Source of the DNA: a virus
Strand: one strand, 5' to 3'
Length of the DNA: 39,427 bases
Virus record (IMG/VR): IMGVR_UViG_3300036790_000526
Coordinates: 1 to 39,427 of that record
Shown here: positions 14,349-39,249 of the stretch, piece by piece
Layout: each line of letters begins with the position of its first letter
How positions within the stretch are numbered: the stretch's first letter is position 1
The notes under the pieces: model-generated
Databases searched by the model: none
What the model was told of the DNA's origin: nothing
What the model saw: only the letters and a program-made list of their open reading frames with translations
Made by a program: the position numbers and the translations under genes

Positions 14349-14984
14349 ATGATCATTGTAGTAGGCGGCATCAAAGGCGGCAGCGGGAAAACCACGATAG
14401 CGACCAATCTTGCGGTGTTGCATTCAATAGATAAAAAAGTTTTATTAGTTGATGCTGACGAACAAAAAAGCGCATGGGATTGGTCTCAACAAAGAGATGC
14501 AGTTCGACCTCCTGGACAAAGAGGAGTTTTCTCGACTGTTTGTATGTCAGGTAAGACAGTCTTTTCAAATCTGATCCGAATGAAAGAGGACTACGATACT
14601 ATAATCGTAGATACTGGTGGAAGAGACACTACATCTCAACGCTCTGCTTTATGCGTGGCAGATAAACTCATCCTTCCTTTTAAACCAAGCTCGATAGACA
14701 TATGGACCATGAGTCCTATCAAAGTCATTCTATCTGAATGCGTCAATGAACTACTAAAATCTTATGCAGTTATCAGTCAAGCTGATCCTATAGGAAAGGA
14801 TAATCAAGAGGCTATCGAAATTCTTAAGGAATTCCCTGAAATTCAAACCTTAGACTGTACCATTGGAAACAGGAAAGCATTTAGAAATGCAGCTGCTGAA
14901 GGTCTTGGAGTATGCGAAATGTATCCCATGGATAAAAAAGCATGTCAGGAAATGCAAACCATTTACGAGTTAATATATACCTGA
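14349..14984 (+). CDS. parA: ParA-type partition ATPase
   Basis: 211 aa. A deviant Walker A KGGSGKTT (residues 9-16, signature lysine K9 and K14), the Walker A' VDADEQ (about D35) and a Walker B with DTIIVDTGGRD (D88) identify the ParA/MinD family. It lacks the N-terminal HTH of larger ParA proteins, so it is type Ib (ParF-like). Such proteins segregate low-copy plasmids on the nucleoid with a small DNA-binding partner, here the ribbon-helix-helix ORF 47 bases downstream. This indicates plasmid-like maintenance of the phage. Confidence 0.9.
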   Translation: MIIVVGGIKGGSGKTTIATNLAVLHSIDKKVLLVDADEQKSAWDWSQQRDAVRPPGQRGVFSTVCMSGKTVFSNLIRMKEDYDTIIVDTGGRDTTSQRSALCVADKLILPFKPSSIDIWTMSPIKVILSECVNELLKSYAVISQADPIGKDNQEAIEILKEFPEIQTLDCTIGNRKAFRNAAAEGLGVCEMYPMDKKACQEMQTIYELIYT

Positions 14985-26043: not shown

Positions 26044-26625
26044 ATGCCAAGCTTTAGCGACTGGCTCTTTGGGAGCCCAGACAAATTAGAAAAAGTTCCA
26101 ACAGGAACAAAAGAGCAACAGCAATTTGGGGGGCATGATCTTATAAGCATGCTTCAACAAATGATGCAGCAAGGAGGAGGATTAAACCTTGCCAATCAAT
26201 ATGACAAAGGCTTATTGGGTCAAGGTCAAGAAGCATTCGATCAATTTTCATCTCCGTATCTACAGCAGTTTCAAGAAAAATTGCTTCCTCAAATAGCCGA
26301 ACGATTTGCGAGTGCTGGGGCACTTTCTTCAAGTGGTTTTGGTCAAGCATTGGGAGGTGCTGCATCTGATCTTCAATCGCAACTTGCACAGTTATTTTCC
26401 AGTTTACAAGGACAAGCTGCTCAAAGACAACAAGGTCAATTTCAGAATCTCTCTCAATTAGGACTTAACTATCAGCCTTTTCAATATGTTCAAAAACAAG
26501 GTTATTCAGGTTTCTTGAATAATCTTTTGGGAGGTGTAGGAAATTCTCTAGGTCCTAATATTGGAAATGCTCTTGGAGGAGGAATCAGCAGCCTATTTAA
26601 AGGTTCGCAAGGGGGCATTTCATAA
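26044..26625 (+). CDS. Gly/Gln-rich ejection-type protein
   Basis: 193 aa, rich in G, Q, S and A, with a start MPSFSDWLFGSPDKLEKVP and helices MLQQMMQQGGG. Such proteins are common in podovirus internal or ejected sets (P22 gp7 class), delivered through the cell envelope with DNA. The C-terminal Gly-rich helices (GGVGNSLGPNIGNALGGG) could contact membranes. Function is inferred from composition and order. Confidence 0.6.
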   Translation: MPSFSDWLFGSPDKLEKVPTGTKEQQQFGGHDLISMLQQMMQQGGGLNLANQYDKGLLGQGQEAFDQFSSPYLQQFQEKLLPQIAERFASAGALSSSGFGQALGGAASDLQSQLAQLFSSLQGQAAQRQQGQFQNLSQLGLNYQPFQYVQKQGYSGFLNNLLGGVGNSLGPNIGNALGGGISSLFKGSQGGIS

Positions 26626-27917
26626 TGGTTGGAGTAATCGCAAAATTAGAAAATCCTCAAAGTAAGCTATCTGACATGCTGGGTATGAGTTTAGGACAGG
26701 GGATTGGAAGTGGTCTAAATACCTTCTTTGCCAATAGAAGTCTAGAAAGCGTGTTGCATGATAAGGCTCTTGAAAGAGCTCCTCAATCCAAGAAGATGGA
26801 AGCGCTTCAATCTGCGTTGAGTCCATATGGAGAAAAAGGACAAGAAATCCTTCAACAAAGAATGCTTATTGATAAACAGGAAAGAGAAGAAAAAGAGCTT
26901 GCTAAAACAGAAGATGAAAAAGAGGTGTTAGGTCGTATTCTTGCTGGAGAGAAAGTTTCCAACAAAGATATGGCTAAAGTTAAACCTGAGAATCAATTAA
27001 AGCTTAAAGAGATTCAGCAAAAAACCCAATTTGGAAAGAATGTCTATCAAAATCTTATTGATGCGGGATATCCTGAATCTACAGCTAAACTTTGGCAAAG
27101 TCAGATAGAAAATTCTACGATTGGTGGCTTATCTGACACAATTAAGGAAGTTAATAAGCTTCTTTCTCGTTCTGGTCCAGGTCGAGGTGTTAACGGTGAA
27201 AATGCACCAACTAACCAATTAAAACCAAGTATAGACATACCAGGCACCAATTTAGGAGCGCTTGAATTAGATTTTCCTGAGCTACCCGAACCAGTTGGAT
27301 TAAATTCCGCTGACGTCGTGAAAATGGGAACAGAACACAGGAAAACTAATACACCTCTTTATAACGATACTGTTGATAGATTGAATGCTCTTGATGATGA
27401 ATATAGAGAAGTTAAACACTTACAGGAATTGAATGAAATCCCAGGTGCTTTGCCTACTGGCGCGGAAAAGTGGAATGTGGATTGGGATACAGGAGATTTA
27501 CGAGTCAAAGCTTTAGCAACTCCTGAAGCTCAAGACTATGTAAAGACTATTGCTCGTATGGCAAGAAGAGCGAAAGACTTCTTCCCTGGCAGGGTCACTA
27601 ACTTTGACTTAGATCAGTTCAAGCAAGGTTTTCCTACCTTGGCTAATAGTCCTGAAGGTCGAAGACTCATTGCTGAACAGCTTTCTTTAGGTAACAGAAT
27701 TGCTTATCTCAAGGACGAAACCTTCAAGGCTGCCATGGATCATTATGGCTCAGGAGCTGATCCAGTATTAGTCAAAAAGTATGCAACTGAGAATTACAGG
27801 AAGCTAAAATCACAACTAGAAGAACAGCTAAAGCAAACCAATGCACGAGCTAGACAAATGGTTGATAAAGAGTCTAGCAAAAAAGGTAGACCTTCTTTAG
27901 ATGAGATTTTTCAATGA
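26625..27917 (+). CDS. Ejection-type internal virion protein
   Basis: 430 aa, long charged helices with a coiled-coil part (about 55-125) and an N-terminal Gly-rich start (GMSLGQGIGSGLNTFFANRS). Placement between two other ejection-type genes and before a 601-aa one suits the three ejected proteins of P22-type phages. Overlaps its neighbours by 1 and 4 bases. No enzymatic motif seen. Confidence 0.6.
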   Translation: MVGVIAKLENPQSKLSDMLGMSLGQGIGSGLNTFFANRSLESVLHDKALERAPQSKKMEALQSALSPYGEKGQEILQQRMLIDKQEREEKELAKTEDEKEVLGRILAGEKVSNKDMAKVKPENQLKLKEIQQKTQFGKNVYQNLIDAGYPESTAKLWQSQIENSTIGGLSDTIKEVNKLLSRSGPGRGVNGENAPTNQLKPSIDIPGTNLGALELDFPELPEPVGLNSADVVKMGTEHRKTNTPLYNDTVDRLNALDDEYREVKHLQELNEIPGALPTGAEKWNVDWDTGDLRVKALATPEAQDYVKTIARMARRAKDFFPGRVTNFDLDQFKQGFPTLANSPEGRRLIAEQLSLGNRIAYLKDETFKAAMDHYGSGADPVLVKKYATENYRKLKSQLEEQLKQTNARARQMVDKESSKKGRPSLDEIFQ

Positions 27918-29719
27918 CCACTCAAGAAAAATATCACAAGGCAAGAGAGGCTGGGTATTCCGATGAAGAGATCATGGAATTTATGGCTAAAAAAGACCCC
28001 TCTTTTGAACAGAAAATGGTTAAAGCACAAGATGCTGGCTATTCTCCTCAGGAAGTACTTGGTTATTTCAATTCTCCTGCTCAGCAAAAAGAACCGACTT
28101 TTGGTAAATACCAACCTTATGCAGATGTAGCAGCCGAATATGGTTCGGACATTGGTAAACAGGCAGCTCAAGGTTTTGGTATTGGAGCTCTTGGAACCTA
28201 TGGAGATATTCTTGATTTATTTGGACTACAGTCTAAAGAAGTTCTTCCTGGAGAAAAGGCTAAATATGGTCGTGAATCTGATATCTTAGATAAGATACAA
28301 GGAGGTGCAGTCCCATCCCTTGGTGAGTTCATGGAGTTATCAGGAGATGATGACATTCTTCCTCGTTATTCAAGGCTTCCTTCCTCTTCACAAGTAGAGT
28401 CTTTTGGTAAAGAATTAGGTCTAGTCTCAGAACCTAAAACAGCAGCTGGAAGATACGCAAGAAGAATTGGCAAACTCGGGGGTGGTGGTGCATCTTTGGG
28501 TGGTGGAGGTATTTTATCTCCTATCATTGCAGGGAGTGCTGGACAAACACTTGAAGAAATGGGAGCACCTCCTTGGGCTCAAGCCGCTGCTGAGATTGTT
28601 GCCTCTTTAAAATATGCCCCAAAATCTAACATCCCTATCACTTCGAAAAGTAAAGAAGTTGAAAATGTCATAAAAGATTTGAGAAAAGCTGGATATTCAG
28701 AGAAAGATATCACTTTGGCAAAGAGTGCTCTAGAAGATAGAAAGATTTTGAAAAAGTATGCAACACTCACTCCAGAGGCAGAAAACGCTATTCAACAAGG
28801 AGTAAAAAACAGTGAACAACTCTTCAAAGAACAAATCAAAAAAGGTCTCCCAGGATACGCCGAAGGGGGTATTCCATATCTTGAAAAACAAGCTTCTAGC
28901 CTTTATGGAGCTATGGAAGAATTGGCCTCCAGCATCGCCGTAACAAACAAAGAGCCAGTCAAAAAATCAATCCAAAAAGCTATTGATTATCTGGAAAAAT
29001 ATCCACTTCTAGATGAGCAAAAGAAATTCATAGAATTCATGAAAGATGGTCTTGCTAAGGTAGATAAATCCGATACCGCTGAATTTCTAACAGGATTCTA
29101 TCGAAATCTTGGAAAAGCTGGTAACTGGGGAGATCCTAAACAAAAAGAACATTTACTTGGTTTAGTGAAGCAAGGAATTAAAGACTCGTTTGCTCAATCA
29201 GGGCCAGATGCTGCCAAATTCGGAAAGTATTTTGAAGCTACCAATGAGGGATGGAAGAAGTGGCTAAACGCCCGTGATCTCATGGAAACCATTGAGAAAA
29301 CACAAAATGTCGATGGCATGAACTTCAAGAAACTCGCAAATGTTCTTAATGATCCAAAGAATCATGACCTTGCCAAGAAAGTTTTAGGAAATGAACAAGT
29401 AGATGGGATCAAAACGATAATTAAAGGCGCTGATGCTATTGAATCTCTTCTAAAACAAATCCCCAAAGCTGATAAAACTTCTGCTGCTATTAAAACTCTC
29501 GAAGGGGTTCGCTCCCTTATTACTGGTGATTTCCGAACCTTAGGCGCCATCATTGGTATTGAAGCTGCTAAAAAACTATCTACGAAACTTCTCATTGATC
29601 CGAAGAAACAAAATATCATGAAGAAGCTTATCATTGCTGCCAGAAACAATTCTCCTCAGCAGGCAATGATATTGGCTCAAGAGCTAGTTGAAGACGTTTC
29701 TCTCGAGCCAGAGAAGTAA
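27914..29719 (+). CDS. Large ejection-type protein with AGYS repeats
   Basis: 601 aa. The start carries short helical repeats: AREAGYSDEEIMEFM and AQDAGYSPQEVLGYF, and a third (LRKAGYSEKDI) near residue 260. A Gly-rich hydrophobic helix follows (about 185-210, GGGGASLGGGGILSPIIAG), which could insert into a membrane. The rest is helical. It looks like the largest ejected protein. No transglycosylase motif was found. It ends 35 bases before the convergent nuclease gene. Confidence 0.6.
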   Translation: MTTQEKYHKAREAGYSDEEIMEFMAKKDPSFEQKMVKAQDAGYSPQEVLGYFNSPAQQKEPTFGKYQPYADVAAEYGSDIGKQAAQGFGIGALGTYGDILDLFGLQSKEVLPGEKAKYGRESDILDKIQGGAVPSLGEFMELSGDDDILPRYSRLPSSSQVESFGKELGLVSEPKTAAGRYARRIGKLGGGGASLGGGGILSPIIAGSAGQTLEEMGAPPWAQAAAEIVASLKYAPKSNIPITSKSKEVENVIKDLRKAGYSEKDITLAKSALEDRKILKKYATLTPEAENAIQQGVKNSEQLFKEQIKKGLPGYAEGGIPYLEKQASSLYGAMEELASSIAVTNKEPVKKSIQKAIDYLEKYPLLDEQKKFIEFMKDGLAKVDKSDTAEFLTGFYRNLGKAGNWGDPKQKEHLLGLVKQGIKDSFAQSGPDAAKFGKYFEATNEGWKKWLNARDLMETIEKTQNVDGMNFKKLANVLNDPKNHDLAKKVLGNEQVDGIKTIIKGADAIESLLKQIPKADKTSAAIKTLEGVRSLITGDFRTLGAIIGIEAAKKLSTKLLIDPKKQNIMKKLIIAARNNSPQQAMILAQELVEDVSLEPEK

Positions 29720-29754
29720 GATAATTCCTGCAATAATCTGTATAATAATCATTT

Positions 29755-30231
29755 TTAATCCTTTAAATATTCTATTGCTCTTTTAAAGATCTCTATATCG
29801 TCATTCCATTTACCCAGTGTTAAATTACAATCACTGCACAGTAAGCCTCTTATTTTATTGGTATTATGGCAATGATCAACCGATAGATTTCTTCCATTTT
29901 TTTGTGGTTTAAGGCAAATTTTGCATTTCCGGTTTTGAAATTCATACATTTTAACATATTCATAAACATCTATTTTATAATTTGATCTTAAACAAATATT
30001 AAAATGTTTTAGTTTTGCAAGACATGTTCCTTTAGGAAAGACATGTAAACATTCATGTAGTCTTTTACAAGAGATAGAGTGTCGTGCTAGATTAGGTTTT
30101 GCTATGCCAATTTTACAATGTTCACATTCAACTCTCACGTTAAAACCTCCAGGTCTTTTTCCTTTCATGGCATACCTAATTTTATCTTTAGATTCCTGAG
30201 TATGCGGTCCTTTAAATCCTAATCTTTCCAT
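29755..30231 (-). CDS. HNH/endonuclease VII-type nuclease with NUMOD3-like start
   Basis: 158 aa. Residues 100-135 match the endonuclease VII fold: CKIC, then VDHCH and CSDC, where D119, H120 and the four cysteines form the metal and catalytic centre. The start GPHTQESKDKIRYAMKGKRPG matches NUMOD3, a DNA-binding module of homing nucleases, and a CxxC-H-C finger (36-55) lies between. It overlaps the end of rtcB by 13 bases. A free-standing homing nuclease is likelier than a packaging resolvase. Confidence 0.75.
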   Translation of the reverse strand: MERLGFKGPHTQESKDKIRYAMKGKRPGGFNVRVECEHCKIGIAKPNLARHSISCKRLHECLHVFPKGTCLAKLKHFNICLRSNYKIDVYEYVKMYEFQNRKCKICLKPQKNGRNLSVDHCHNTNKIRGLLCSDCNLTLGKWNDDIEIFKRAIEYLKD

Positions 30232-31397
30232 GGATCGTACTCATTTGGAGCCGCCATACATACACCAATAGGCGTTAGAGTGTGCAGAATTTTTATTGTC
30301 CCTTGATGCGCCTTAAGGACTTCTTCAATTCTTTTGTAAGAGTAGGGTGATTCGTCAAGATCTCCTCCGCGCACTTCGACGCCAACTCGTTTAATCCAGG
30401 CATCGTGTTCATCTCTTTTGATGATTCCTTCTGTGAGCATTTTGCCTGTTTTTCGGCATCGTTTTCCTTTTGCTTGATTTCTTCCGAGGAGACGTCCTGT
30501 TCCATGCACTGTCGAATTAAGAGCCTGTGTACTCTCAGGTGATTCGATTCCCTCAAGTATGACGGAAACATCCCCCATAGAACCTCCCACAAACCCTCTC
30601 TGACCATGGAAAGCAGGTGTGGCTCCTTTTCGGACAACCCACAAATCTTTATCAAAATGCCTCTCTTTCCATGCAAAGTTATGGTGATTGTGGCACTCAT
30701 CAACAATCCCTGCTCTAAGTATTTTGGCAACACGGTCGCATACCCAATCTCTGCCAGCGTAAGCATACTTACCAGCGAGTTCCATGCATTTAAGATATTG
30801 GGCTCCGAGGTCTGAATTTTCATCAAGAATAACCGGCTCTGCGTGGACTCCATCTTTTCCTCCTGCTGCTTTTATGAAATGAGTCGCGATACAATGTCCC
30901 AAACCGCGGCTCCCAAAATGAACGCCAACCCAAACCCTATTAAGCTCATCCGTAAAGATATCCACGTAGTGGTTACCTGAACCAACGGTACCAAGCTGAC
31001 TTGCTGCTTTATCTTTAAGATTTCTGAGAATTTCCAGTTCGTCCCACACATGGTCATCGAAGATGCTATGCTCCACCTTCTCGCTATTCTTTCTACCGAC
31101 GCCAAAGGAAATATGTTTTTGAACTTCATTCATTGTCCTATAAATGTTTGATTTAACAATATCGGCGCTAACATCAAGAAGAACAGCTTTATTACCACAA
31201 GCGATATCAAAACCAACACCGTTAACGCAGATTTTTCCTTCATAAGCGATAACACCGCCAACTGGCACAGAATATCCAATATGATGATCAGCCATAAGAG
31301 CCCCATATACAGCTTCATATTTCATAGCCTCCTTCATTTGGCTTACTGCCTCTGGTAATGCCTCACCCCATACAGGAATTTGATCTATCAGTTGCAT
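30219..31397 (-). CDS. rtcB: RtcB-type RNA ligase
   Basis: 392 aa. RtcB seals RNA with 2',3'-cyclic phosphate or 3'-phosphate ends to 5'-OH ends, using GTP and Mn. Metal and GMP motifs are intact: GVGFDIACG (D64, C67), VGSGNHYVDI (N142, H143), HFGSRG (H160), CHNHHN (236-240), GGSMGD (271-276) and VHGTGR with the guanylated histidine H298. The end GVCMA then DPWKD differs from the VKG end of E. coli RtcB, as in a bacterial RtcB subgroup. No archease is seen. It is in the leftward SPFH operon (TAATG overlap with the gene before it). Confidence 0.92.
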   Translation of the reverse strand: MQLIDQIPVWGEALPEAVSQMKEAMKYEAVYGALMADHHIGYSVPVGGVIAYEGKICVNGVGFDIACGNKAVLLDVSADIVKSNIYRTMNEVQKHISFGVGRKNSEKVEHSIFDDHVWDELEILRNLKDKAASQLGTVGSGNHYVDIFTDELNRVWVGVHFGSRGLGHCIATHFIKAAGGKDGVHAEPVILDENSDLGAQYLKCMELAGKYAYAGRDWVCDRVAKILRAGIVDECHNHHNFAWKERHFDKDLWVVRKGATPAFHGQRGFVGGSMGDVSVILEGIESPESTQALNSTVHGTGRLLGRNQAKGKRCRKTGKMLTEGIIKRDEHDAWIKRVGVEVRGGDLDESPYSYKRIEEVLKAHQGTIKILHTLTPIGVCMAAPNEYDPWKD

Positions 31398-31801
31398 TAG
31401 AAATCCTCATAAATGGGTTTTACTTCGCAAGCAAGACGATCAACTTTATCTAGTGATCCTCCATAATATCCGTTGCTTGCATTACGCATTTCAAGTTCAC
31501 AAACTCCTTGGCTCGTAAACATTTTAAAAGAATAAACTTTCTCTACTTCTTGTTTTCCCGAAAATCCTTCTTGACCTTCATGGATTTCAGGCATATCAAT
31601 TTGTTCTGTTTTTAAAACTTTTTGACCAATAAGTGCTTGAAGTCCAGAAATATGATTTATCCAGCTTTCTGAGCAACAGTCTCCCTCTGTAATATAGGAA
31701 AAAACACCTTGATCAGTTTCAAATTGAATACAAGTATTGGTGAGTTCCATACGTACTTCTTTTATAGTTTTGTCTACTAAATCTTCTAATTTCTCATACA
31801 T
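31397..31801 (-). CDS. DUF7448-like protein between SPFH and RtcB genes
   Basis: 134 aa from ATG 31801, chosen for the TAATG overlap with the SPFH stop (a longer start would overlap far into that gene). The pattern fits a conserved phage/bacterial protein of unknown function: an N-terminal LEDLVDKTIKEV, a CCSESW site (about 42-47), and a C-terminal MRNASNGYYGG. Mixed alpha/beta. The function is unknown; the conserved position between an SPFH and an RtcB gene suggests it belongs to the same process. Confidence 0.65.
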   Translation of the reverse strand: MYEKLEDLVDKTIKEVRMELTNTCIQFETDQGVFSYITEGDCCSESWINHISGLQALIGQKVLKTEQIDMPEIHEGQEGFSGKQEVEKVYSFKMFTSQGVCELEMRNASNGYYGGSLDKVDRLACEVKPIYEDF

Positions 31802-32640
31802 TACTTCACCTGTATAAAAGGAGTTACTCCACTTGTTACTGAAAGAAGTTTTCCATCCCATTTCTGAACAGCTTGCCATTGGATCAATTCTGCCGTCACT
31901 GATTTTGATAGGAGATTGTTGGCTTTCGCTTCAGATTCCGCTTGAACGACAGCGCAACGTGCTTGTCCATCTGCCTTAGCAATCTGTTTCTTAGCCTCTG
32001 CTTCTGCTTCTCTAAGTTCATTTTCTCTTTGCTGGGCTCTTTGATTAGCCTCAATTTTCGAATTCAAAGCTGCAATAACGTTGGGAGGGAAATGAAACCT
32101 TCCGATGAGATAGATTCTAGTTATTTCAATTCCAATTGGACTAAGATCTTCTCTAACATGTCTTTCGACATCTTCAAAGAATGTAGCTTTTCCACTATAT
32201 AGCTCTTCAATATGTGTTCTAGAAGCGGCTTTATTAATAGCATCGCGGATATAGTTCCTAATAAAAGTATGAGTAATTTCGTCCATTCCCCTTCGGTATT
32301 TCTGAAAAACCATAGGTATGCATTCAGAGCGAAGATGATATGTGATGCCCATATCAGCAGATACAGCCATACCTTCGGCTGTTTGAAAATGGAAACCTTC
32401 ACGATCGCCCTCCCAGGTGTCATTTTGTTCAAATATAGGGAATTGATAAACGGTTTTCCAAGGAGAAATCCAATGCATCCCCACATGCATTTCTTTGGCC
32501 TCAACCCCTTTATTATCTCCCAATAAGTCTACAACCACACCTACATAATCAGGTGAGATCATTTTAAAACAGAATACCCATGCGGTAAAAAATATAATTG
32601 CGAAAACGATCGATAAAGGTTTCCAATTTCTCTTCAGCAT
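31801..32640 (-). CDS. SPFH/Band-7 membrane protein (prohibitin/HflK-like)
   Basis: 279 aa. A single N-terminal membrane span (about 9-26) is followed by the Band-7 domain (DYVGVVVDLLGDNKGVEAKEM, then HVGMHWISPW, IGIEITRIYLIGRF) and a charged helical tail rich in Ala, Glu, Lys and Gln (about 205-250), typical of oligomeric scaffolds at membranes. SPFH proteins assemble rings that organise membranes and control proteases. The start is preceded by AAGGAATAGG. Membrane topology and oligomerisation are inferred from the family. Confidence 0.88.
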   Translation of the reverse strand: MLKRNWKPLSIVFAIIFFTAWVFCFKMISPDYVGVVVDLLGDNKGVEAKEMHVGMHWISPWKTVYQFPIFEQNDTWEGDREGFHFQTAEGMAVSADMGITYHLRSECIPMVFQKYRRGMDEITHTFIRNYIRDAINKAASRTHIEELYSGKATFFEDVERHVREDLSPIGIEITRIYLIGRFHFPPNVIAALNSKIEANQRAQQRENELREAEAEAKKQIAKADGQARCAVVQAESEAKANNLLSKSVTAELIQWQAVQKWDGKLLSVTSGVTPFIQVK

Positions 32641-32642
32641 TC

Positions 32643-32819
32643 CTATTCCTTGGTTTGTTGAGCCAGTTCTATTGGCATAATGTTCTTCATGATTAAGACA
32701 GTTTTTACAATAGTCATTTCCTTATCTAATTCATTGAATCTAGTATTCATCCAAAGAACAGCCGATCCAAAAGCAGTTAGAATAATGACGGTATCTACGT
32801 GTTTTTTGAACCAATCCAT
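32643..32819 (-). CDS. Small single-span membrane protein
   Basis: 58 aa from ATG 32819, chosen for AAAGGAG upstream (an in-frame ATG at 32855 is less likely). A short basic N-terminus, a membrane span of about 15-18 residues (VIILTAFGSAVLW) and a charged helical tail. It could partner the SPFH protein or be a holin-type protein. It ends 2 bases before the SPFH start. Confidence 0.6.
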   Translation of the reverse strand: MDWFKKHVDTVIILTAFGSAVLWMNTRFNELDKEMTIVKTVLIMKNIMPIELAQQTKE

Positions 32820-32823
32820 GTGA

Positions 32824-33033
32824 TTAGTCTCCTTTTTTATTCTTTGGATTTTCACACATTCCCTTTAATTGCAATCTTTCTAGTTCGGATTCAGCAATTC
32901 TAAAAGGTGCTTTTACTCCCATGCTTGGTCTAGTAGCATAAATCTTTCCTTCTCTAATCGCCCTTCTAATACTACCTGGATGCATTTTAACGCATTTAGC
33001 GAATTCTTCTACTGTAAGAAAGTTAATACTCAT
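32824..33033 (-). CDS. Excisionase/MerR-like HTH protein, first gene of the leftward cassette
   Basis: 69 aa. Residues 5-52 fit a helix-turn-helix of the excisionase/MerR type (FLTVEEFAKCVKMHPGSIRRAIREGKIYATRPS, beginning with TVEEFA). AAAGGAG precedes the ATG. It is first behind the promoter at 33063-33091, so it may control the cassette it heads. Binding to DNA is expected from the fold; the site is unknown. Confidence 0.7.
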   Translation of the reverse strand: MSINFLTVEEFAKCVKMHPGSIRRAIREGKIYATRPSMGVKAPFRIAESELERLQLKGMCENPKNKKGD

Positions 33034-33062
33034 AATTGCTCCTTTGTAACACAGATATCCTC

Positions 33063-33091
33063 ATTGTCACATATTTAATATTAAACGTCAA
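33063..33091 (-). promoter_or_regulatory. Sigma70-like promoter of the SPFH-RtcB cassette
   Basis: On the minus strand TTGACG (33086-33091, 5/6) and GACAAT (33063-33068, 4/6) are 17 bases apart, 30 bases before the HTH gene. Its own host-type promoter means the cassette can be expressed independently of late phage genes. Confidence 0.65.
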
Positions 33092-33179
33092 CCTTCTGTG
33101 ATTCAATGAATATTTATATTGACCTCCATGAATTTTATGCAGCAGTTTTAAATTTTAAACCTTCAACAGGAGTATCTAT

Positions 33180-38382: not shown

Positions 38383-39249
38383 CTATGCAACCATTATTTT
38401 CCAGCTAGAGGTGGAATTCTTTCGGTATTTATCTACATCAATTCCTTGAAGCTCAGGAATGGCATCATAGTCCACTCTGCCTCGCATTGTAGTCTTCATA
38501 ACCCTTAATCCTTCCCCTGAACAGTTCTGATCACCACAGAGCTTTAATAGTTCTTTTCGATAGCTTTCCTTAATCTCCTCCAGATTTTTAATCTGATCAT
38601 TGAGTTTTCTATATTCTCTTGCATATCCTTTCCATGCTGGTTCATCAGACATGTTTTTATAGTCCGAATCTTGCAATGCTGGCGGCTCATTGAAAGCGAT
38701 ACATTTCAAGAAAGCTCGTGCCACAGGGATAAAGTTTTTGGCGAAATCAGCTTGAGGATATACATCAATGATAATATCTTTGGTTTCATCTTCACTACCC
38801 ACTTGATAGAAGCACTTCTCAGCTCCTGTGACTAACAACTGATGTTGCATTTGGTCTAGATAGTATTGGGGTACAACACCATCTTTAGCCATTTGGTATA
38901 GTTTGTGGCCTCCTGTTTTTATCTCCAAGATGTATTTTCCACAGTCCGAGAGTCCATCCAAAGATGCTCCTAAGAATTCATATTCTGAACTCTCTACGAC
39001 TATAGGAGTCATATTGATTCCGAATTTCTTTATGAATCTATCTCTGATAAAAGGCTCAAGCCTTTTACCTCTTTCCATGGCATCATTAGTTTTTTGCTCT
39101 GGAATCAAATCAAGCTTCTTTTGCCAGCACTTATATGCTGTTGACCAAGGAGAAGAGCCCAGAATAGCTGGGCAATCCGTTGCTGTTATGACCGTCTTTC
39201 TCCAAGACAGCCATTCTTGCGATCCTTGCTCTAATTTAATTACCTTCAT
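38383..39249 (-). CDS. YqaJ-type exonuclease
   Basis: 288 aa. YqaJ nucleases (lambda Red alpha type) resect double-stranded DNA 5'-3' for the annealing protein. Visible sites: an N-terminal GSQEWLSWRKTVITATD, RLEP (E65), GASLDGL (D98), LEIKTG (E109, K111) and YYLDQMQHQL (about 129-138), the usual motif order of the PD-(D/E)XK fold. GAGGTGAT precedes the ATG. It is downstream of ERF and a 63-aa ORF in the same operon, which supports the exonuclease/annealase pair. Confidence 0.9.
   Translation of the reverse strand: MKVIKLEQGSQEWLSWRKTVITATDCPAILGSSPWSTAYKCWQKKLDLIPEQKTNDAMERGKRLEPFIRDRFIKKFGINMTPIVVESSEYEFLGASLDGLSDCGKYILEIKTGGHKLYQMAKDGVVPQYYLDQMQHQLLVTGAEKCFYQVGSEDETKDIIIDVYPQADFAKNFIPVARAFLKCIAFNEPPALQDSDYKNMSDEPAWKGYAREYRKLNDQIKNLEEIKESYRKELLKLCGDQNCSGEGLRVMKTTMRGRVDYDAIPELQGIDVDKYRKNSTSSWKIMVA

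What the first reader, a model, noticed from the sequence alone, without database searches (positions are those of the whole stretch)
29755..33091. Leftward cassette: HTH, small membrane protein, SPFH membrane protein, DUF7448-like protein, RtcB and HNH nuclease
Six genes read against the surrounding virion genes, share overlapping stops/starts (TAATG twice) and have their own sigma70-like promoter. RtcB repairs broken RNA such as tRNAs cut by anticodon nucleases. Linking it to a membrane SPFH scaffold and a DUF7448-like protein in a phage suggests a compact, membrane-linked RNA repair or anti-defence unit. I do not know a described system with this exact gene set.
Basis: partly seen in the sequence, partly recalled or inferred. 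Interest (0 to 1): 0.85.

Follow-up and report, generated by a model that had tools for sequence, protein, structure and literature searches.

The report
Swappable phage island with RNA ligase
A small soil virus of bacteria carries, beside its tail genes, an exchangeable set of helper genes including an intact enzyme for rejoining broken RNA and a membrane-ring protein; these two also sit together in unrelated phages and in some bacterial RNA-repair operons, which makes a shared role in surviving host attack plausible but unproven.

Summary
Six genes read leftward against virion genes: HTH, small membrane protein, SPFH, DUF7448, RtcB and an endonuclease VII-type HNH enzyme. The fixed six-gene 'unit' does not hold. 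The cassette is an exchangeable island behind a conserved HTH gene and promoter. In 17 related islands found through a flanking gene, HTH is always present, intact RtcB in 4, intact SPFH in 4, both in 2, and DUF7448 in none. The closest relative lacks SPFH through endonuclease and keeps an SPFH deletion scar. RtcB is probably a working 3'-phosphate/5'-OH RNA ligase: every metal ligand and the guanylylated histidine are kept, and selection is purifying. It belongs to a subfamily with K480 changed to M and E206 to D. SPFH-to-RtcB order does recur: in other positions in this lineage, in unrelated phiCbK-like phages, and (published) in bacterial rtc loci. Predicted topology puts the phage SPFH domain in the periplasm, away from cytosolic RtcB, so a docking scaffold is unlikely. 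Best reading: an accessory counter-defence island, with RtcB repairing RNA cut by host ribonucleases, a separate membrane module, and a probably homing nuclease. New variant of known kinds; function untested.

The parts
33063..33091 (-). promoter of the cassette (TTGACG-17-GACAAT)
   Evidence: TTGAC kept upstream of HTH in nearly all of 19 related islands
32824..33033 (-). HTH_17/excisionase-like DNA-binding protein, leader gene of the island, probable regulator
   Evidence: Pfam 1.8e-7; present in every related island with both ends of the cassette held
32643..32819 (-). 58-aa probable single-pass membrane protein with amphipathic tail (VLIMKNIMP motif)
   Evidence: hydropathy just under the cut-off; selection on it
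31801..32640 (-). SPFH/Band 7 protein, one N-terminal TM helix, SPFH domain predicted periplasmic
   Evidence: Pfam 6.7e-29, phrog_200 3e-66; topology; dN/dS about 0.05
31397..31801 (-). DUF7448 protein, all-beta, invariant CC and NGYY
   Evidence: Pfam 4e-15; 67-row alignment; model pLDDT 95.5
30219..31397 (-). RtcB RNA ligase, subfamily with K480 to M and E206 to D
   Evidence: Pfam 6.9e-65; active-site columns; dN/dS about 0.11-0.16
29755..30231 (-). endonuclease VII-type HNH nuclease, probably free-standing homing endonuclease
   Evidence: PF02945 6.8e-25; PDB Hpy99I and T4 endo VII hits; patchy presence beside RtcB
29684..29752 (-). 22-aa hydrophobic ORF at the end of the cassette
   Evidence: Read; kept in the closest relative L192
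33119..33142 (+). conserved element upstream of the rightward tail gene (TTGACCTCCATGAATTTTATGCAG)
   Evidence: Conserved block; once in window, 0.01 expected with up to 3 mismatches

Best explanation
An exchangeable accessory island of a P22-portal-type podovirus, lying antisense between the genes in the place of ejection proteins and a tail gene, the place where P22 keeps sieA. A conserved promoter and HTH leader gene drive it (sequence shown; regulation inferred). Cargo is gained and lost by recombination (shown by comparison). In this virus RtcB most likely seals tRNA or rRNA that host ribonucleases cut to 2',3'-cyclic phosphate (or 3'-phosphate)/5'-OH ends, keeping translation alive (inferred from intact chemistry). 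The small membrane protein and SPFH form a separate membrane module with the SPFH domain in the periplasm, acting on membrane quality control or on entry of other phages (inferred, weak). DUF7448 is an unknown soluble accessory. The endonuclease is a mobile homing-type gene. SPFH and RtcB are probably selected together loosely, not as a physical complex.
For: 17 distinct flank-gene-selected islands: HTH always, intact RtcB 4, intact SPFH 4, both 2, plus one with both broken. Nearest relative L192 lacks SPFH-to-endonuclease and keeps both ends of SPFH as a scar. Minimal island L218 is HTH plus one 72-aa membrane protein. RtcB: all ligands and His404 kept in every relative that covers the site (about 89 viral and 80 chromosomal rows), purifying selection. 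Same subfamily on chromosomes sits beside 2H cyclic phosphodiesterases (CPDase in 8 of 71 adjacent genes). SPFH usually pairs with a small membrane protein, not with RtcB. Topology. P22 sieA between genes 16 and 9 (PMC10883804).
Against: No experiment. Host unknown, so no target ribonuclease named. RtcB lacks K480, which is close to GMP in P. horikoshii (from memory). The 27914-29719 gene was not recognised as an ejection protein. Repeated SPFH-to-RtcB order in unrelated phages argues for a closer link than 'loose'.
Confidence: 0.5

Rival explanations
1. SPFH and RtcB are a true functional pair without touching: one membrane event, such as entry of an injected or membrane-bound tRNase or damage to the inner membrane, needs both a periplasmic ring or cage and cytosolic RNA repair.
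For: Same order SPFH then RtcB in several positions of this lineage (L090 1-nt overlap, L095, L096), in phiCbK-like phages and Bajun with 25-30% identical SPFH; stomatin-like gene with rtcA and rtcB in Pelobacter (PMC3543383), PaFlo8 in the P. aeruginosa rtc locus (PMC13086221), slipin and rtcB under one repressor in Anabaena (PMC10272220). In the 7 lineage records with both (one broken), they are always within about 2 kb on one strand.
Against: Both genes mostly occur apart (0 of 56 further SPFH loci with RtcB nearby; 2 of 34 SPFH records with any RtcB, not adjacent; 1 of 24 other RtcB viruses with SPFH, in reverse order). Co-occurrence in the surveyed islands is not significant (p 0.12, or 0.06 counting the broken pair and the window). 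In three named phages with both, the genes are 18-96 kb apart.
Confidence: 0.28
2. Integrated membrane-linked RNA-repair machine: SPFH scaffold recruits RtcB, DUF7448 and others.
For: Tight overlapping operon in the window; DUF7448 within 2 kb of RtcB, same strand, in L046, L074, L249, L263, L304.
Against: Periplasmic topology of SPFH, lipoprotein-like signal in the phiCbK and Bajun SPFH; no co-inheritance; modules come and go separately.
Confidence: 0.1
3. Chance neighbours only: unrelated morons that share a landing site and a promoter.
For: Highly variable cargo including methyltransferase, DUF29, sigma-r4-like and GIY-YIG genes in the same slot.
Against: SPFH-RtcB order in unrelated phages and bacterial operons.
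Confidence: 0.12

Closest known systems
Bacterial rtc RNA-repair loci with an SPFH gene (Pelobacter Pcar_2837-rtcA-rtcB; P. aeruginosa PaFlo8)
   Same: SPFH gene next to rtcB
   Different: No RtcA and no RtcR here; different regulator (HTH_17), phage-borne, divergent RtcB subfamily
phiCbK-like Caulobacter phages and Brevundimonas phage Bajun
   Same: Membrane gene, SPFH, then RtcB on one strand
   Different: SPFH has a lipoprotein-like signal; RtcB only about 30% identical; no HTH leader and no DUF7448 seen at that locus; jumbo siphoviruses
P22 sieA/mnt/arc/ant region
   Same: Accessory genes with their own promoter beside the tail gene, membrane protein plus small regulator
   Different: No SieA homologue found; ejection-protein identity of the left neighbour is by position only
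Phage RtcB of mycobacteriophages (cluster K1) and jumbo phages
   Same: Phage RtcB, tRNA protection proposed
   Different: No SPFH linkage reported there; no tRNA genes in this window

Membership tests
RtcB RNA ligase superfamily (PF01139) | Profile match over curated cut-off | tested here: met
   220 bits against 27
RtcB RNA ligase superfamily (PF01139) | Metal ligands D95, C98, H203, H234, H329 and guanylylated H404 | tested here: met
   D64, C67, H143, H160, H239, H298
RtcB RNA ligase superfamily (PF01139) | GTP-dependent joining of 3'-phosphate and 5'-OH RNA ends | not testable with these tools
   Needs biochemistry
Canonical archaeal-type RtcB | C-terminal K480 and E206 | tested here: not met
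   M381 and D146, invariant in viral and chromosomal relatives: a separate subfamily
Rtc operon (rtcR-rtcB-rtcA) | RtcA cyclase and RtcR regulator beside RtcB | tested here: not met
   Neither among the cassette genes
SPFH/Band 7 | Band_7 domain with N-terminal membrane anchor | tested here: met
SPFH/Band 7 | Ring or cage oligomer | not testable with these tools
   Not modelled
DUF7448 (PF24240) | Profile match over cut-off, CC and NGYY | tested here: met
Endonuclease VII HNH | Profile match, zinc CxxC pairs, DHCH motif | tested here: met
   CKIC...VDHCH...CSDC
Homing endonuclease | Cuts the homing-minus allele and copies itself | not tested
   Patchy presence and weak NUMOD3 (E 0.15) only
P22 sieA-type locus | Between ejection gene 16 and tailspike gene 9 homologues | tested here: inconclusive
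   Right flank has a tail-type domain; left flank has no match to a known ejection protein

The most novel reading that the evidence does not exclude
Unrelated phages, and some bacteria, pair a membrane-anchored SPFH protein (periplasmic in the phages) with cytosolic RtcB as a two-compartment answer to RNA-cutting attack coupled to the membrane, and this window carries a version with DUF7448 as a third partner.
Probability: 0.2. Interest if true: 0.75.

Novelty: new variant of a known kind. Interest (0 to 1): 0.48.

Why it matters
It ties a poorly understood phage membrane protein family (SPFH, 369 of 50,697 named phage records) to RNA repair in a way that can be tested in a culturable phage (phiCbK on Caulobacter), and shows where a lineage of soil podoviruses keeps its exchangeable, possibly counter-defence, genes.

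Tried and rejected
DUF7448 fold: confident model, but no Foldseek match under E 0.001 and best VIA Z 6.1 (immunity protein PIM7, 8owu), too weak to assign. P22 ejection homology of 26625 and 27914: no PDB match beyond noise. Rfam and tRNA search: nothing. PADLOC: no strong defence match; weak REase_II on the HNH end and marginal DrmD and mad1. Co-inheritance of SPFH and RtcB: no sign of it. A terminator and the promoter by consensus alone: not above chance. Burroughs and Aravind 2016 could not be read. SPFH next to chromosomal RtcB of this subfamily: not among the 25 commonest families of adjacent genes (the rest of that table was not shown).

Full report
What is there. The window is an IMG/VR virus record of 39,427 bases with a P22-type portal. 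On the minus strand, 33033 to 29755 holds HTH, a 58-aa probable membrane protein, SPFH, DUF7448, RtcB and an endonuclease VII-type nuclease. TAATG junctions join SPFH to DUF7448 and DUF7448 to RtcB; RtcB and the nuclease overlap by 13 nt. The genes on both sides read the other way.

An island, not a fixed unit. I searched by RtcB, SPFH and DUF7448 and then, without choosing for cargo, by the flanking gene 26625-27917. Counting near-identical records once, 17 islands besides the window hold the HTH leader; intact RtcB is in four, intact SPFH in four, both in two, and one more island has both genes broken. DUF7448 is in none of the 17. Other cargo in the same slot includes a methyltransferase, DUF29, a sigma-region-4 protein, a GIY-YIG enzyme and small membrane proteins with an FHxRLC motif. 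The smallest island (L218) is HTH plus one 72-aa membrane protein. The closest relative, L192, lacks everything from SPFH to the nuclease and keeps the first 10 and about the last 30 bases of SPFH as a scar; its stretch over the small membrane gene is 98.6% identical to the window while the flanks are 85-90%, so pieces are exchanged by recombination. Upstream of HTH, TTGAC is kept in nearly all of 19 islands, most with an AT-rich -10 about 17 nt on; the strict pattern as scanned was met in six. This is what makes the promoter credible, since consensus matching alone is at chance.

The site. The island lies between genes in the position of ejection proteins and a gene with a K1-lyase C-terminal domain. 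In P22 and its relatives sieA lies between genes 16 and 9 (PMC10883804). The left flank could not be confirmed as an ejection protein, so this is a parallel, not a homology.

RtcB. Alignment to P. horikoshii RtcB and to 90 viral and 84 chromosomal rows shows D65, D95, C98, N202, H203, H234, R238, H329 and the guanylylated H404 all kept. E206 is D and K480 is M in every relative that covers the site, viral and chromosomal. This is a separate RtcB subfamily, about 60% identical to genes of Acidobacteriota, Bacteroidota, Chloroflexota and other phyla. The podovirus copies form one clade with two MAG contigs, of which L112 carries other genes of this phage and is a phage contig. dN/dS is about 0.11-0.16 against close relatives. 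On chromosomes the commonest same-strand neighbour is a 2H cyclic phosphodiesterase (8 of 71), consistent with work on RNA ends.

SPFH and RtcB together. In this lineage 7 of 22 SPFH records have RtcB (one broken), always downstream on the same strand within about 2 kb, four in this island and three elsewhere in the genome. But 0 of 56 further SPFH loci have RtcB nearby, only 2 of 34 SPFH records have RtcB anywhere, and 1 of 24 other RtcB viruses has SPFH, downstream of RtcB instead of upstream. Pairwise identities of the two proteins are uncorrelated over seven genomes (r 0.16, permutation p 0.28), and co-occurrence among the surveyed islands is not significant (p 0.12). Against this, unrelated phiCbK-like phages (26 records) and Brevundimonas phage Bajun carry SPFH then RtcB, 128 to about 540 bp apart, with a multi-pass membrane gene just before SPFH in the two I read (RBC11, Bajun). 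Five of eleven named RtcB phages tested by profile have SPFH, adjacent in these two. Published rtc loci in Pelobacter (PMC3543383) and P. aeruginosa (PMC13086221) hold an SPFH gene, and in Anabaena one repressor controls rtcB and a slipin (PMC10272220). Recurrence in separate lineages is real; how far it exceeds chance over all phages was not measured, and the eleven named phages were picked by hand from the hit lists.

Mechanism. Residues before the single SPFH helix are basic and those after are acidic (3 K/R and 0 D/E before, 0 K/R and 3 D/E after), so the SPFH domain should face the periplasm; the phiCbK-like (RBC11) and Bajun SPFH carry a lipobox-like signal, also periplasmic. RtcB is cytosolic. 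A docking scaffold is therefore unlikely. The best-supported reading is RNA repair by RtcB (inferred) beside a separate membrane module (inferred). In distant phages SPFH is usually preceded by a coupled small membrane gene, which fits a membrane pair independent of RtcB.

DUF7448. It occurs widely in phages (97 named records; 83 viral loci). It lies within 2 kb of RtcB on the same strand in three of those 83, and in L046 and L074, which were found through RtcB. The model is confident (pLDDT 95.5) but no fold match is strong.

Literature. Phage RtcB has been proposed to guard tRNAs (PMC3203893; PMC7824862). I found no paper that links phage SPFH to RtcB in the open library; most subscription papers are not held.

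Noticed in passing
14349-14984 (+): ParA-like partition ATPase (phrog_164, 2.8e-39); with ERF (127-831) and YqaJ (38383-39249) recombinases, the virus may be a phage-plasmid.
   Followed up: partly
L330-L363 upstream of SPFH: In distant phages SPFH is usually preceded, often with a 4 or 8 nt overlap, by a 55-85 aa two-helix membrane protein with a PxLIS..T..LV..G motif: a likely partner.
   Followed up: partly
L106:1769-2636, L045:3599-5779: SPFH interrupted by a GIY-YIG-like ORF in L106; RtcB of 726 aa in L045 looks like an intein insertion. Homing elements seem to target both genes.
   Followed up: no
RBC11, Ccr phages (e.g. PV231355.1 141567-142397): SPFH protein annotated 'putative serine protease' in many Caulobacter phage records; profile says SPFH.
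   Followed up: yes
L165 and other Verrucomicrobia loci: Chromosomal RtcB of this subfamily sits directly after a 2H cyclic phosphodiesterase gene.
   Followed up: partly
L229: Tunturiibacter phage Tunturi_5 has RtcB next to a RimK-like S6 modification enzyme; Anabaena TrcR also co-controls rtcB and rimK.
   Followed up: no
33119-33142 (+): Element TTGACCTCCATGAATTTTATGCAG conserved before the rightward tail gene across the lineage, single in the window; possible late promoter or operator.
   Followed up: partly
L112: Phage contig of this lineage binned in a Myxococcota (Deltaproteobacteria) bog MAG: a weak host hint.
   Followed up: no
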